Below, piece after piece: positions 52,255-57,486 of a stretch of DNA of 64,000 bases. The notes under the pieces are model-generated. The model made no database searches, was not told the DNA's origin, and worked only from the letters and a program-made list of their open reading frames with translations. The DNA is from Thermoanaerobacterium sp. RBIITD (GTDB taxonomy: Bacteria > Bacillota > Thermoanaerobacteria > Thermoanaerobacterales > Thermoanaerobacteraceae). Positions within the stretch are counted from its first letter, which is position 1. Each line of letters starts with the position of its first letter. The DNA is taken from NCBI RefSeq assembly GCF_900205865.1, contig NZ_LT906662.1, positions 868,001 to 932,000 on the forward strand, written 5' to 3'. Made by a program: the position numbers and the translations under genes.

Positions 52255-53595
52255 TCAAAGGACTTTAGCCGCAAGTTCTGCAACTTCCGATCTTTCGCCT
52301 TTTATCAATGTCACATGACCTGCAATTTTATACTCTTTGAATTTATCTACAACCTGTGTTAAGCCGTTACTTGTCGAATCAAGATACGGGTTATCTATTT
52401 GCTCTGGATCTCCTATTAGCACTATCTTGCTTTCTTCTCCTACCCTTGATATTATGGTTTTTATTTCATGCCGTGTTAAATTTTGAGCTTCGTCTATTAT
52501 AATAAACTGCTTTGGTATGCTTCTACCCCTTATATATGTGAGAGCTTCTATTTCAATATTTTTTATTCCTGCTATTATATCTTCTATATTTGTGCTGCTT
52601 TTCCTTCCTCTAAAAAGATATTCAAAATTATCATAAATCGGCTTCATCCATGGCTTTAATTTTTCATCTTTATCACCTGGAAGATACCCAATATCATTTC
52701 CCATTGGAACTATAGGCCTCGCAATCAATAATTTATTGTATTTTCTTTCATCCTGTGTCTTAAAAAGCCCGCAGGCAAGTGCTAACAAAGTTTTACCTGT
52801 CCCTGCTTTGCCTGTTAATGTTACTATAGGTATATCATCTCTTAGTAAAAGATCTATCGCCATCTTTTGTTGGACATTTCGCGGTGTGACATCCCATATG
52901 GATTCAGGCGAATAAAGATGTTCAAAGGTATTGTCCGTAGCATTGTATCTTGAAACGGCAGATTTATTGCTACCAAATATATCTTTAAATATGACATATT
53001 CATTAGGATAAATATTTTGTATATATTTTAACTGCTCTATATCATCTTTATTTAAATATTTTTCTATATAAAAAGAATCTATAAGAGATGGATGAACATT
53101 TACAGTTATAAATCCCGTATATAGTTCATCATAATTAACAATCTTGTCTGATAGATAATCTTGTGAAGTGAGTCCAAGAGATTCGGCTTTAACTCTCATA
53201 ATAACATCTTTTGACACAAGGATTACAGGCATGGGATCATCTTTACGCATTTCTTCAAGATATATATTAAGTGCAACAGCAAGTATCCTGTTGTCATTAG
53301 TTACATCAACAAAATGCTGTCTTATAGAATCCATAGAGATATGGTTTAACTCGATTTTTAAAGTGCCACCATTTCCAAGATCTACGCCTTCATTAAGTTT
53401 CCCATTTTTTCTTAAGTCATCAAGAATTCTCGCAGTATGCCTCGCATTTCTGCCGACTTCGTCCTGATACCTCTTTTTGTCATCTATTTCCTCAACAACG
53501 ACTGCCGGAATTATCACCTCATTATCCTCGAAGTTATATATTGACATTGGATCGTGTAATAAGACATTAGTATCGAGAATATATTTCTTCTTCAA
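52255..53595 (-). CDS. PhoH family protein with N-terminal PIN domain
   Basis: A 446-residue protein: an N-terminal PIN ribonuclease-like domain (KKYILDTNVLLHDP, with EEIDDKKR near residue 35) and a C-terminal PhoH ATPase with Walker A LTGKAGTGKTLLALACG near 265 and Walker B FIIIDEAQNLTRHEIKT near 370. Such YlaK-type proteins are thought to act in RNA metabolism. The start is a TTG following AAGGGGG. Monocistronic, no obvious partner nearby. Confidence 0.9.
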   Translation of the reverse strand: MKKKYILDTNVLLHDPMSIYNFEDNEVIIPAVVVEEIDDKKRYQDEVGRNARHTARILDDLRKNGKLNEGVDLGNGGTLKIELNHISMDSIRQHFVDVTNDNRILAVALNIYLEEMRKDDPMPVILVSKDVIMRVKAESLGLTSQDYLSDKIVNYDELYTGFITVNVHPSLIDSFYIEKYLNKDDIEQLKYIQNIYPNEYVIFKDIFGSNKSAVSRYNATDNTFEHLYSPESIWDVTPRNVQQKMAIDLLLRDDIPIVTLTGKAGTGKTLLALACGLFKTQDERKYNKLLIARPIVPMGNDIGYLPGDKDEKLKPWMKPIYDNFEYLFRGRKSSTNIEDIIAGIKNIEIEALTYIRGRSIPKQFIIIDEAQNLTRHEIKTIISRVGEESKIVLIGDPEQIDNPYLDSTSNGLTQVVDKFKEYKIAGHVTLIKGERSEVAELAAKVL

Positions 53596-53763
53596 GGAAT
53601 TACCCCCTTATGCAAAAAAGTAATATGTACCTTTATTATAATTTTATCATTTATTAATCTCGATTAATATATTTATATGTTAAATCATTGTAAAAATGTA
53701 TTTATTATATGATCCGGACAAAGCAATATTTAATTTACTTTTATGTAAAAAGTTGATAAAAAA

Positions 53764-53780
53764 ACCTGCAGAATGCAGGT
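53764..53780 (-). terminator. Terminator after the LysM gene
   Basis: ACCTGCA and TGCAGGT form a short perfect stem with a 3-base loop; on the minus strand seven T follow. Confidence 0.8.
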
Positions 53781-53791
53781 AAAATCATATA

Positions 53792-54151
53792 TTATTTTCC
53801 TGGTATTGGCAGGCATATTACTTGCCCAACTTGCAAATAATTTGGATTTACATACGGATTTAGTGCTAATATTTTATCCACCGTTGTTCCAACGGTCTGT
53901 GCAATACTGTACAATGTATCACCAGGAGCAACTTCCCAGTAAACACCTGTAGGACACTCAGGTGTTTTGCCATATGGTATTATAGGCGGAAGGCATATTA
54001 CTTGACCTATCTGTAGATTATTGGGATTTATGCCGGGATTTGCTTTTATTATATCATCAACAGTACTTCCTGTCTTTTGCGCTATGAGCCATAATGTATC
54101 ACCTGGGCCAATAGTGTAGTACCTCCCCGATGGGCAATATGAATATGGCAT
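53792..54151 (-). CDS. Protein with two LysM domains
   Basis: A 119-residue protein made almost entirely of two LysM repeats: YYTIGPGDTLWLIAQKTGSTVDDIIKANPGINPNNLQIGQVICLP and a second copy from about residue 70. No signal peptide is visible; small double-LysM proteins of spore formers lacking one are often spore-coat or cortex-associated (SafA-like), but this is inference. The ATG follows AAGGAGTG. Its start lies just outside the IS110 element, so the insertion may have changed its promoter region. Confidence 0.85.
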   Translation of the reverse strand: MPYSYCPSGRYYTIGPGDTLWLIAQKTGSTVDDIIKANPGINPNNLQIGQVICLPPIIPYGKTPECPTGVYWEVAPGDTLYSIAQTVGTTVDKILALNPYVNPNYLQVGQVICLPIPGK

Positions 54152-54245
54152 TATATCACTCCTTGTATAATATATTTAGGTTAATAAAGGCAACCTATAA
54201 TCCTTTTTTAGCTGATAAATTATACTTAAAATTGTATAATTAAGT

Positions 54246-54418
54246 TATTAGATAGAGTATTGTCGTTCACTCCTTGAGATTGAAAGCTCGTACTTGAAAG
54301 ACTGACACCTCTGTCTGATAAACTGATTACGAATAAGTTGGATGTTGACTAACTCGATTAGTACTTCGAATGTAGAACAAGGCAGTAACGTTTATCAGTT
54401 TAGAGGAACTATCTAAAA
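54246..54418 (+). ncRNA. Candidate IS110 bridge RNA
   Basis: After a TATAAT (54235-54240), the outer stem TTAGATAG (54248-54255) pairs with CTATCTAA (54409-54416). An inner stem TAAACTGAT (54319-54327) pairs with ATCAGTTTA (54394-54402) and encloses a loop of about 58 bases that would be the donor-binding loop. The 5' half (54256-54318) has further short helices, for example AGAC...GTCT, and would contain the target-binding loop. About 170 bases in total, the size of known bridge RNAs. Confidence 0.65.
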
Positions 54419-54442
54419 TACATTGATTATGGGTGATTAAAA

Positions 54443-55636
54443 ATGTTTTATTTAGGTATTGATATCGGGAAAAACAATCATGTAGCTTCTTTAATTGATG
54501 AAAAATGTAAAATCCTCTTTAAAGCTTTCTCTTTCCCAAACTCTTACGTTGGTGGTGATAGCTTACTTGATAAGCTTGCTTCCTTTAACATCTCTGTTAA
54601 TAATGTTGAAATTGGTATGGAAGCTACGGGCCACTATTGGTTATCTATTTATTCTTTTCTTGTTGAAAAAGGTTTTGTTATTCATGTTATTAATCCTATT
54701 CAAACTGATGGTTGGCGTAAAGGAACTGAAATCAGAAAGCGCAAAACCGACATCATCGATTCTATACTAATTGCAGATCTTATTCGCTACGGTGATTTCT
54801 TAGAAACTTCTTTAGCCAACGAAGATACTATCTCTCTTCGCAATCTTTCTCGTTTTAGAAATTACCTCATCAATTCTATAGGTGACCTTAAGCGTAAGAC
54901 CGTTTGTGTTTTAGATCAAGTTTTCCCCGAATATCAATCTATCTTTTCTAATATCTTTGGACAAACGTCTAAGGAAATCTTACTCCACTTTAATACGCCG
55001 GATGATTTTGAAAATATTTCTTCTGAACAATTGCAGCAGGTTTTGTCTGAAATTACTATGAAAAAATTTGCTATGGATAAAATCAATGAAATTTCTTCTG
55101 CTGCTAAAAAATCTTTTGGTATTAAGTTTTGTTTGGATAGTTTTTCTCTGCAATTAAGATTATTAATTGAGCAAATTAATTTTATCGAAAAACAGGTCAC
55201 AGATGTTGAAGAGCAGATATCAGTTTTACTTGATAAAATCAATTCTCCTATTACTACAATACCTGGCATTGGCAATGTAACAGCTGCAACAATTTTAGGA
55301 GAAATAGGAGATATTTCAAGGTTTAAAAATCCATCAAAGCTTGTAGCTTATGCCGGTATTGATGCTTCTATATCACAATCAGGAGAATATAACAGTACAA
55401 ATAACAAAATGAGTAAGCGAGGTTCTCCTTATCTTAGGAAAGCTCTTTTTAGTGCTGCATTAGTTGCTTCTAATTGTGACCCTGTTTTTAAGGCTTTTTA
55501 CCAAAAGAAACGTTCAGAAGGCAAACATCACCTTACAGCTATTGGAGCTGTAGCACGCAAGCTTTGCTATACTATTTGTGCTATTTTAAAAAACAACTGT
55601 GCTTATGAAGTAAAACTTCCTAAAAATGATTGTTAG
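54443..55636 (+). CDS. IS110-family transposase (DEDD recombinase)
   Basis: A 397-residue recombinase. The N-terminal RuvC-like domain keeps all four acidic residues: Asp7 in FYLGIDIGKNNH, Glu60 in GMEATGHYW, and Asp103 and Asp106 in KTDIIDS. The C-terminal Transposase_20 domain contains IPGIGNVTAATILGEIGDI and AYAGIDASISQSGEY (residues 303-317) with candidate catalytic serines at 309, 311 and 313. It appears intact and could be active with the RNA encoded just upstream. Codon use is less A-ending (more C/T-ending) than its neighbours, consistent with recent arrival. Confidence 0.95.
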   Translation: MFYLGIDIGKNNHVASLIDEKCKILFKAFSFPNSYVGGDSLLDKLASFNISVNNVEIGMEATGHYWLSIYSFLVEKGFVIHVINPIQTDGWRKGTEIRKRKTDIIDSILIADLIRYGDFLETSLANEDTISLRNLSRFRNYLINSIGDLKRKTVCVLDQVFPEYQSIFSNIFGQTSKEILLHFNTPDDFENISSEQLQQVLSEITMKKFAMDKINEISSAAKKSFGIKFCLDSFSLQLRLLIEQINFIEKQVTDVEEQISVLLDKINSPITTIPGIGNVTAATILGEIGDISRFKNPSKLVAYAGIDASISQSGEYNSTNNKMSKRGSPYLRKALFSAALVASNCDPVFKAFYQKKRSEGKHHLTAIGAVARKLCYTICAILKNNCAYEVKLPKNDC

Positions 55637-55705
55637 TAAATCATACTAATTACATATATTTACTTTTAACTTGGTATTACCAGGTTTATTTGTCATGCAT
55701 TTTTA

Positions 55706-55856
55706 TTCACCCTCTTGGCAAAATTTTTTTATTTTTTTCTATTGACTTTTTATAGTTGGTCTTTCACCATTTGTTAATATAATATGCAATGTAAAATTTA
55801 TGGTGAATTTATTAGTTTATATAAATATTATTGTGGTATAATTGTTATAGGGTGAA
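55706..55856. repeat. Nested inverted repeats upstream of the PPC-domain gene
   Basis: TTCACCCT (55706-55713) is mirrored by AGGGTGAA (55849-55856), and inside it TTCACCAT (55763-55770) is mirrored by ATGGTGAA (55800-55807). The outer right arm lies just downstream of a TATAAT box (55837-55842). They could be operator half-sites for the PPC gene or traces of an element end. Confidence 0.4.
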
Positions 55857-55896
55857 AATTTATGAAAAATTTAAATAATTATTAAGGAGTGTAATT

Positions 55897-56325
55897 ATGG
55901 GATACATAAATATCGATGTGAAAAGAAGATTGATGGGTCGGTTTCAGTATGATAATGATTTGTTGCAAGAGATTAATAAACTCATTATAAATGAAAATAT
56001 ACGCTCGGGTGAAATAAGGCTTATAGGTGCAGTTAAAAAAGCAAGATTTGGCTTCTTTGATCAAGCCACAAGGGAATACAAATTCATCGAAAAAAATGAA
56101 CACATGGAGATATTAAGTGCAATAGGCAATATTTCAATAAAAGATGGAAAGCCATTTCCACATGTACATATTGCACTCGCTGATAAAAATGGAAATGTGC
56201 ATGGTGGTCACCTCATGGAGGGAACAAAGATATTTGCAGCAGAGTTTGTTGTCGTCGATTACGGTGAAAATAAGCTTGAAAGAATTGATGACGAATTTAC
56301 AGGATTACAGCTTTGGAATCTATAA
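55897..56325 (+). CDS. PPC (DUF296) domain protein
   Basis: A 142-residue protein with the PPC/DUF296 fold: GRFQYDNDLLQEINKLIINENIRSGEIRLIGAV near the start and the conserved PFPHVHIALADKNGNVHGGHLMEGT near residue 85, including the histidines that bind metal in bacterial homologues. Related domains occur in plant AT-hook proteins; the bacterial single-domain form has no firm function. The ATG follows TTAAGGAGTG. It stands alone next to the IS110 element. Confidence 0.87.
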   Translation: MGYINIDVKRRLMGRFQYDNDLLQEINKLIINENIRSGEIRLIGAVKKARFGFFDQATREYKFIEKNEHMEILSAIGNISIKDGKPFPHVHIALADKNGNVHGGHLMEGTKIFAAEFVVVDYGENKLERIDDEFTGLQLWNL

Positions 56326-56351
56326 TACGGATAAATTTAAATAACTTAATT

Positions 56352-56377
56352 AAAAGGCATCCTTTGTGGTGCCTTTT
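56352..56377. terminator. Terminator between the PPC gene and the flavoprotein gene
   Basis: AAAAGGCA pairs with TGCCTTTT around a 10-base loop, with T-runs on either side making it usable in both directions. Confidence 0.75.
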
Positions 56378-56421
56378 AAATTTGTATCAGCAACCATTTC
56401 TTTTTACTATCACTTAATAAT

Positions 56422-57486
56422 CTATTTTAATATCCGAATAATTGGGTGTGCGTATTTTATTACATTTATATTTGACCCATAGATGACATTTCTTATAATA
56501 GGCAAACCAAGCAGTCTTATAAATCTATCATAGTCCTTGTTTTGAAGTTTATCTATAAATGTTCTATAGTTTGTAAGGATCTCAACTTTTTTTACAATTT
56601 TTTTAACCATCTTCTCATAGTCCTTACCCATTGCAATCGACCTTGCTGCAAAGATGCCACTTTCTATTGCATGAAACGCTCCGAGTCCTAGAAGCGGGTC
56701 AATAAAACCTGCTGCATTTCCAACAAAGTATATATTATTTACCTTATGCTCTTTTGCGATGCCTGTATCGACATCCAGCTCAAATGTCTCAATAATTTCA
56801 TAATTTAGTCCTTCATTGTGTAAAAATAGATTCCATAAATCATCGAGTTCACCATGCTGTGCATATGTCGTTATAAGAGCAAGTGTTGCTCTATGTTGGT
56901 CGAATGGCATAAGATATCCATATCCAGACCTAGCATAGTCTGTATTAAACCACAATACAGCTGTATACGGGTCAAAATCGCCAAGTACCGTCGCACCTTT
57001 TACCCAAGTCGTTATAGTTGTTTTCCACTCAGAAAGCTGCTCGATAATACTGCTATTTCCTGTTGCTACAACTACAAAGTCATAATCATTTGCAAGCTCT
57101 CTATAGTCGGGATTTACATTATAATTTATCTTTGAAGTCACAGATCTAACTAATTGATTTTCTAATGAATTAACGTCCTGACTTCTTAAAATAAAATATC
57201 CGAGATTACCTCTTACTGTTGCTTGATATTTGGGAGAGTGCATTATAACAGTGCTCATCCTTCTCACAGGTTCTAATGAAATGCCGTACATGCACCTTAA
57301 ATAATTAAATGGGTCTTTAATCGGTCTATCTTCAATCTGAAAAAATGCCCCAATATTGTTTTGTATTGTCCCTGTCATGTTCTTCCTCTCAAATATAACA
57401 CAAGGTATACCAAGCCTTTCAAGCTCATGTGCACATGCAAGCCCGGCCAGTCCTGCTCCCATTATTGCCACCCTCATATGCTTCAT
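56422..57486 (-). CDS. FAD/NAD(P)-dependent oxidoreductase, paralogue 1
   Basis: About 354 residues. An N-terminal dinucleotide-binding fold (VAIMGAGLAGLACAHELERLG ending in Glu at VIFER) and a C-terminal FAD-binding block YFVGNAAGFIDPLLGLGAFHAIESG near residue 260 place it with geranylgeranyl-reductase/monooxygenase-like flavoproteins. The ATG at 57486 has AGGA-AAGGAA in front; the open frame reaches to 57564, overlapping the previous gene. It resembles the next protein along its whole length (for example RPIKDPFNYL versus RPIKDPLDYI), so the two are tandem duplicates. Substrate unknown. Confidence 0.75.
   Translation of the reverse strand: MKHMRVAIMGAGLAGLACAHELERLGIPCVIFERKNMTGTIQNNIGAFFQIEDRPIKDPFNYLRCMYGISLEPVRRMSTVIMHSPKYQATVRGNLGYFILRSQDVNSLENQLVRSVTSKINYNVNPDYRELANDYDFVVVATGNSSIIEQLSEWKTTITTWVKGATVLGDFDPYTAVLWFNTDYARSGYGYLMPFDQHRATLALITTYAQHGELDDLWNLFLHNEGLNYEIIETFELDVDTGIAKEHKVNNIYFVGNAAGFIDPLLGLGAFHAIESGIFAARSIAMGKDYEKMVKKIVKKVEILTNYRTFIDKLQNKDYDRFIRLLGLPIIRNVIYGSNINVIKYAHPIIRILK

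What the first reader, a model, noticed from the sequence alone, without database searches (positions are those of the whole stretch)
54200..55740. Intact IS110 element with a foldable bridge-RNA leader
The transposase keeps all DEDD residues and the C-terminal serine region. Its upstream leader holds an outer stem (54248-54255 with 54409-54416), an inner stem (54319-54327 with 54394-54402) and a large internal loop, the architecture expected of a bridge RNA with target and donor loops. Such RNA-guided recombinases are known, but this copy, from an apparently thermophilic host, would be a new and possibly heat-stable example. The element ends and guide pairings are not resolved here.
Basis: partly seen in the sequence, partly recalled or inferred. 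Interest (0 to 1): 0.7.

Follow-up and report, generated by a model that had tools for sequence, protein, structure and literature searches.

The report
RNA-guided jumping gene at ribosome-binding sites
This is an apparently intact IS110 mobile element whose own guide RNA, now read letter by letter, matches both the element's ends and the ribosome-binding sequences it inserts into; it is a well-resolved member of a known class of RNA-guided recombinases rather than a new kind of system.

Summary
The element runs from a CT core at 54162-54163 to a CT core at 55761-55762 (1,599 bp per unit). Its host carries five copies, four of them identical over the 1,541 bp compared. The 397-aa recombinase has both IS110 Pfam domains and the IS621 catalytic set (D7, E60, D103, D106, S313). 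The leader encodes a two-arm bridge RNA: across 35 relatives its helices are 92.7% paired, with compensatory changes at 24 of 33 pairs. All four guides are resolved, and each tracks its DNA partner across relatives: target guides 54267-54274 and 54296-54300, donor guides 54336-54341 and 54377-54381. The joined ends would form a TTGACT-17-TATAAT promoter. Intact empty sites exist, one in the same genome. New detail: the target guide reads as anti-Shine-Dalgarno, and 55 of 75 family insertions abut an ORF start on the opposite strand (11% at random positions). IS900 has a published motif of the same kind. Corrections: the ends lie further out, the inner-stem register was wrong, there are two arms rather than one large loop, and heat stability is not supported. 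Verdict: a new member of a known kind, unusually well resolved; nothing shown at the bench.

The parts
54162..55762 (+). complete IS110-group element, core to core (1,599 bp per unit plus the second CT core)
   Evidence: five own-genome copies end here; flanks are contiguous in empty sites
54162..54163 (+). left core dinucleotide CT, start of left end
   Evidence: shared by target, left end and right end; same CT core as IS621
54157..54165 (-). target: Shine-Dalgarno of the LysM gene (reads CAAGGAGTG on the minus strand), kept after insertion
   Evidence: sequence
53792..54151 (-). LysM-domain gene whose Shine-Dalgarno was hit
   Evidence: ORF, Pfam LysM E 4.1e-33
54166..54171 (+). -10 box TATAAT of the junction promoter
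   Evidence: 17 nt from TTGACT when the ends are joined; ends read
54178..54424 (+). predicted bridge RNA (5' end predicted 7 nt after the -10; 3' end approximate)
   Evidence: alignment A1 of 35 relatives, covariation
54178..54196 (+). 5' stem-loop AGGTT/AACCT
   Evidence: 84.7% of cells paired
54249..54255 (+). outer stem, 5' side (with 54409-54415)
   Evidence: 95.1% paired, 4 of 7 pairs with double changes
54261..54307 (+). target-binding arm: stem 54261-54264/54304-54307, apical stem 54275-54279/54286-54290
   Evidence: 95% paired in both helices, 7 of 9 pairs with double changes
54267..54274 (+). left target guide TCACTCCT, ending in the CT core
   Evidence: tracks the left flank across 71 distinct pairs: 392 matches vs 300 +- 8 shuffled
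54296..54300 (+). right target guide GAAAG, pairs with CTTTC
   Evidence: tracks the right flank, 0 of 5000 shuffles as good
54311..54403 (+). donor-binding arm
   Evidence: helices 5-8; helix 54327-54330/54385-54388 is 100% paired
54336..54341 (+). left donor guide AGTTGG = right-end sequence 55754-55759
   Evidence: AGTTGG, AGTTAG and AGCTGG each match their own end; 0 of 5000 shuffles
54377..54381 (+). right donor guide ACAAG, pairs with left end CTTGT 54162-54166
   Evidence: ACAAG, ATAAG and ACGAG follow the end sequence; 0 of 5000 shuffles
54409..54415 (+). outer stem, 3' side
54443..55636 (+). IS110 recombinase, 397 aa, catalytic D7, E60, D103, D106, S313
55668..55686 (+). intrinsic-terminator-like hairpin after the recombinase gene
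   Evidence: one such site found, 0.9 expected by chance; weak on its own
55742..55747 (+). -35 box TTGACT of the junction promoter
   Evidence: TTGAC conserved in nearly all relatives
55761..55762 (+). right core dinucleotide CT, end of element

Best explanation
This is an IS110-group insertion sequence that moves as a bridge-RNA-guided recombinase. The element excises as a circle. Joining its ends builds a sigma-70-type promoter (TTGACT-17-TATAAT) that transcribes the left end into a roughly 245-nt bridge RNA and then the recombinase. The donor loop pairs with the element's own joined ends (AGTTGG left of the core, CTTGT from the core rightward). The target loop pairs with TCACTCCT and CTTTC around a shared CT core. 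The recombinase (RuvC-like DEDD active site plus a serine) exchanges strands at CT without a target duplication beyond the core. Because the target guide is an anti-Shine-Dalgarno sequence, the element lands on ribosome-binding sites, pointing away from the gene it hits, and leaves that gene's AGGAG intact while cutting it off from its upstream region. Shown by sequence: ends, core, empty sites, copies, RNA structure, all four guide pairings, catalytic residues. Inferred: the circle, transcription, RNP assembly, catalysis, present activity and the effect on the gene hit.
For: Five copies, four identical over 1,541 bp. Shared ends with unrelated flanks. An uninterrupted target at 99% identity over 558 bp, and 100% over the 112 bp across the junction, in the same genome. 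The window site is uninterrupted in same-genus genomes. RNA covariation score 0.470 vs 0.214 shuffled and at most 0.102 when slid. Target guide covariation, left 392 vs 300 +- 8 and right 0 of 5000. Donor guide covariation, both 0 of 5000. Protein homology to IS621 8wt6 E 4e-22 and ISCro4 9t56 E 4e-21, and full-length fold match E about 1e-15. NCBIfam IS110 RNA-guided transposase, 233 bits over the cut-off of 140. 55 of 75 insertions at an ORF start at Shine-Dalgarno spacing vs 10.75% at random positions.
Against: No RNA or activity data. No Rfam family hits the leader. The single-sequence fold is only modestly stable. The permutation tests ignore relatedness of sequences. Some relatives match their flank poorly (G005 3 of 9, L068 2 of 9, L088 3 of 9), and own copy e765 has two mismatches in the six bases next to the core.
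Confidence: 0.94

Rival explanations
1. The conserved leader is a cis-acting 5' untranslated region controlling recombinase expression, and target choice is made by the protein alone.
For: The RNA lies directly upstream of the ORF and would be co-transcribed.
Against: Loops vary together with the flanks on the target side and with the element ends on the donor side, which a plain regulatory leader does not predict. Close relatives with different left guides match their own different targets (L073 GACGGCTCC, L076 ATACTCC).
Confidence: 0.03
2. The element is a dead relic: bridge RNA and gene are present but no longer active.
For: No activity data; a degraded solo left end exists in a same-genus genome (L013); one copy has diverged to 98%.
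Against: Four identical copies at different sites, reading frame open in all five copies, all catalytic residues kept.
Confidence: 0.12
3. Landing on Shine-Dalgarno sites reflects something about translation starts (open DNA, transcription) rather than the guide.
For: 55 of 75 insertions sit at gene starts.
Against: One own-genome copy sits inside an IS21-type istA coding sequence, not at a start, where TCACTCCTT occurs by chance. The flank letters that differ between elements follow the guide.
Confidence: 0.04

Closest known systems
IS621 (E. coli, IS110 group; PDB 8wt6)
   Same: CT core; DEDD plus serine recombinase; bridge RNA in a long left end with a 5' stem-loop and two arms; two guides per arm; promoter rebuilt at the joined ends
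   Different: longer protein here (397 vs 326 aa) and longer predicted RNA (about 245 vs 177 nt); target here is a Shine-Dalgarno sequence, while IS110 elements such as IS621 are reported at repeats such as REP elements
ISCro4 (PDB 9t56)
   Same: homologous recombinase and fold
   Different: about 20% identity in the structural alignment; guides not compared
IS900 (Mycobacterium avium subsp. paratuberculosis, IS110 family)
   Same: published target motif CATGNNNNNNTCTCCTT (PMC8141618) has the same start codon / anti-Shine-Dalgarno layout as the CAT...CTCCTT flanks here
   Different: sequence relationship and bridge RNA not compared here
ISEc21 / ISEc11 seekRNA elements (PMC11187229)
   Same: a non-coding region guides target choice, and the circle junction makes a promoter
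   Different: other target sites; ISEc11 belongs to the IS1111 group with the RNA downstream of the gene
TIGR-Tas nucleases
   Same: related C-terminal domain (below the cut-off; rank 12)
   Different: not recombinases; no TIGR array was looked for or seen here

Membership tests
IS110 family (IS110 group) insertion sequence | DEDD RuvC-like N-terminal domain | tested here: met
   PF01548 E 3.9e-39; D7, E60, D103, D106 invariant
IS110 family (IS110 group) insertion sequence | C-terminal Tnp domain with conserved serine | tested here: met
   PF02371 E 1.2e-28; S313-G314 aligns with IS621 S241-G242 and is invariant
IS110 family (IS110 group) insertion sequence | short shared core and scarless insertion, no longer target duplication | tested here: met
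   core CT only; flanks rejoin to the empty-site sequence
IS110 family (IS110 group) insertion sequence | long non-coding left end (IS110 group) rather than right end (IS1111 group) | tested here: met
   left end 281 bp, right end 126 bp
bridge RNA | conserved structure: 5' stem-loop then two arms with internal loops | tested here: met
bridge RNA | target-loop guides match both sides of the insertion site | tested here: met
bridge RNA | donor-loop guides match both ends of the element | tested here: met
bridge RNA | promoter sequence rebuilt at the joined ends | tested here: met
   TTGACT-17-TATAAT read from the two ends; transcription itself not tested
bridge RNA | RNA is expressed, binds the recombinase and is needed for recombination | not testable with these tools
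   needs bench work
IS1111 group | bridge RNA and long non-coding region in the right end | tested here: not met
   RNA lies in the left end; right end is 126 bp
IS1111 group | 7-17 bp sub-terminal inverted repeats | not tested
   not searched for separately
heat-stable recombinase | thermophile-like protein composition or thermophilic host | tested here: inconclusive
   charged-polar bias -1.0 within the homologue range, 16S 54.4% G+C; host unnamed

The most novel reading that the evidence does not exclude
A whole clade of IS110 elements, found in Clostridia, Bacilli and a fusobacterium, has guides held to anti-Shine-Dalgarno sequences. The near-universal ribosome-binding signal is then a renewable set of landing sites, and because flank plus core restore AGGAG the gene that is hit keeps its start signal.
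Probability: 0.6. Interest if true: 0.5.

Novelty: new member of a known kind. Interest (0 to 1): 0.45.

Why it matters
Bridge recombinases are programmable DNA-rearrangement tools, and members with all four guides and the core read out can go straight into assays. The family offers natural guide-target pairs that covary at single positions, a ready test set for mismatch tolerance. It also links target choice to ribosome-binding sites, which makes testable how an RNA-guided element keeps a steady supply of tolerable targets.

Tried and rejected
Rfam scan of 53500-56500 gave nothing relevant. Single-sequence folding alone was not convincing and was replaced by covariation. Phage collection: no similar DNA; plasmids: only 60-80% matches, nearly all Enterococcus. 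A leftward promoter in the left end that could feed the LysM gene: none in the scan. I first took S324 as the nucleophile; the IS621 alignment puts it at S313. My automatic spacing count mixed in an internal TATAGT (31 cases read as 3); the joined ends give 17 when read directly. Heat stability was considered and not supported.

Full report
The finding was an IS110 transposase with a foldable leader. The ORF 54443-55636 is intact and matches the two IS110 Pfam domains, NCBIfam's RNA-guided IS110 transposase above its cut-off, and the solved IS621 and ISCro4 recombinases by sequence. A predicted model (mean pLDDT 74, so moderate) matches the IS621 and ISCro4 synaptic-complex chains over the whole length, Foldseek E about 1e-15, TM-score by target length about 0.67. 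Aligned on IS621, the catalytic residues D11, E60, D102, D105 and S241 (PMC11208158) are D7, E60, D103, D106 and S313 here; all five, and G314, are invariant in 28 relatives.

Exact ends. The host genome (3.40 Mb, one contig, unnamed) holds five copies: four are identical over the 1,541 bp compared and one is 98% identical. Comparing flanks puts the ends at a CT dinucleotide, 54162-54163 on the left and 55761-55762 on the right, with unrelated sequence outside. The exact base is ambiguous by one T where target and ends share it; CT is chosen because it is shared by all relatives and is the IS621 core. One copy (1885 kb) sits in the istA-like gene of an IS21-type element (ORFs; the family name is my reading of the IstA/IstB-like pair). 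Five uninterrupted copies of that gene exist in the same genome, 99% identical over 558 bp, and the two read out are identical over 112 bp across the junction TTTTTCACTCCTTCCTACAA. That is a clean before-and-after pair: insertion adds no duplication beyond the core. The window site is uninterrupted in several same-genus genomes, at about 70-75% identity.

Promoter at the joined ends. The right end carries TTGACT (55742-55747) and the left end TATAAT (54166-54171). Joining them at CT gives TTGACT, 17 nt, TATAAT. The TTGAC and TATAAT-like boxes recur throughout the relatives (the automatic spacing count there is unreliable for 31 loci because it stopped at an internal TATAGT). IS621 and ISEc11 form such promoters (PMC11208160; PMC11187229). 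This is a sequence reading; transcription was not tested.

Bridge RNA structure. A search of one genome per bacterial species returned 80 related loci, protein identity 52-81%. Thirty-five diverse leaders align end to end. RNAalifold finds 26 pairs, 20 with compensatory double changes. Counting a named structure of 33 pairs gives 92.7% standard pairs, 24 pairs with double changes and a covariation score of 0.470, against 0.214 +- 0.009 in shuffles and at most 0.102 when partners are slid. The architecture is a 5' stem-loop, an outer stem, a target arm and a donor arm, similar to the layout described for IS621 (PMC11208160).

Guides. Left target guide: 54267-54274, TCACTCCT, equal to the left flank up to and including the core. 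Over 71 distinct flank-guide pairs, 392 of 639 letters agree, versus 300 +- 8 with guides shuffled among elements (maximum 330 of 2,000 shuffles). Positions 3-6 before the core carry most of the signal, positions 4 and 5 above all. Right target guide: GAAAG 54296-54300 pairs with CTTTC; elements with other guides carry matching other flanks, e.g. Oceanivirga UAAG with CTTA, and L047 with CTTTTATTT; no shuffle of 5,000 was as good. Donor guides: AGTTGG 54336-54341 equals the right end; relatives with AGTTAG or AGCTGG have AGTTAG or AGCTGG ends (76 of 78 loci agree exactly). ACAAG 54377-54381 pairs with the left end CTTGT, and ATAAG and ACGAG variants follow CTTAT and CTCGT ends; no shuffle of 5,000 was as good for either. 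Shuffles do not remove shared ancestry, so these numbers overstate independence. The agreement of several separate variants on both sides is the stronger argument.

Target biology. On the opposite strand the target reads AAGGAGTGA, a Shine-Dalgarno sequence. In the window it is that of a LysM gene (53792-54151, minus strand). In 55 of 75 loci an ORF of at least 50 codons (or at least 30 and open to the locus end) starts 3-15 nt from AGG, against 10.75% for random positions in the same loci. The flank plus core keep AGGAG after insertion, so the gene that is hit keeps its ribosome-binding core but loses its original upstream DNA (sequence reading; the effect on expression is inference). The copy inside the istA-like gene shows that a matching sequence suffices and a true start is not needed. 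The 8-mer CACTCCTT occurs 103 times in the host genome, the element copies included, so targets are plentiful. The same layout, CATGNNNNNNTCTCCTT, is published for IS900 (PMC8141618), so insertion of an IS110-family element at such sequences is not new. The searches made here found no paper that ties it to bridge-RNA guides or describes this clade, but most subscription literature is not covered.

Heat stability. 16S G+C is 54.4%, the recombinase composition lies within the range of its homologues, and window proteins give a rough 41 C estimate (a crude index). Thermophily of the host may still be true, but nothing here shows a heat-stable enzyme.

Verdict. A real and well-resolved IS110-group bridge-RNA element, probably recently active. 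It is a new member of a known kind; the family-wide Shine-Dalgarno targeting with natural guide variation is the most interesting part.

Noticed in passing
L042 1680-1740: A relative's left flank, GATAGTTGGTCT, mimics the donor end instead of the target guide and abuts a tyrosine-recombinase-like fragment; the right flank does not seem to continue that gene. Possible insertion by donor-like pairing, or a rearrangement.
   Followed up: partly
L013 1455-1705: Solo left end with a decayed bridge RNA and no recombinase in a same-genus genome, again next to TTCTCCTTG.
   Followed up: partly
L068 and L088, left flanks: Flanks ATATACTCC-CTTG and ACTTACTCC-CTTG look shifted by one base relative to the guide (an extra C before the core), suggesting tolerated bulges or slippage.
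   Followed up: no
G000 about 5, 150, 1304, 2821, 3401 kb (L129, L134): Five uninterrupted copies of an IS21-type istA/istB-like element in the host genome; a sixth is split by the IS110 copy at 1885 kb.
   Followed up: partly
window 55884-56325: The gene right of the element encodes a PCC-domain (PF03479) protein; it points away from the element and has its own AAGGAGTG site at 55884-55891, an unused copy of the target motif.
   Followed up: no
L055 upstream of 664: A relative from an Elusimicrobiales metagenome bin lacks the usual left end upstream of the target guide, so it may be truncated or misassembled.
   Followed up: no
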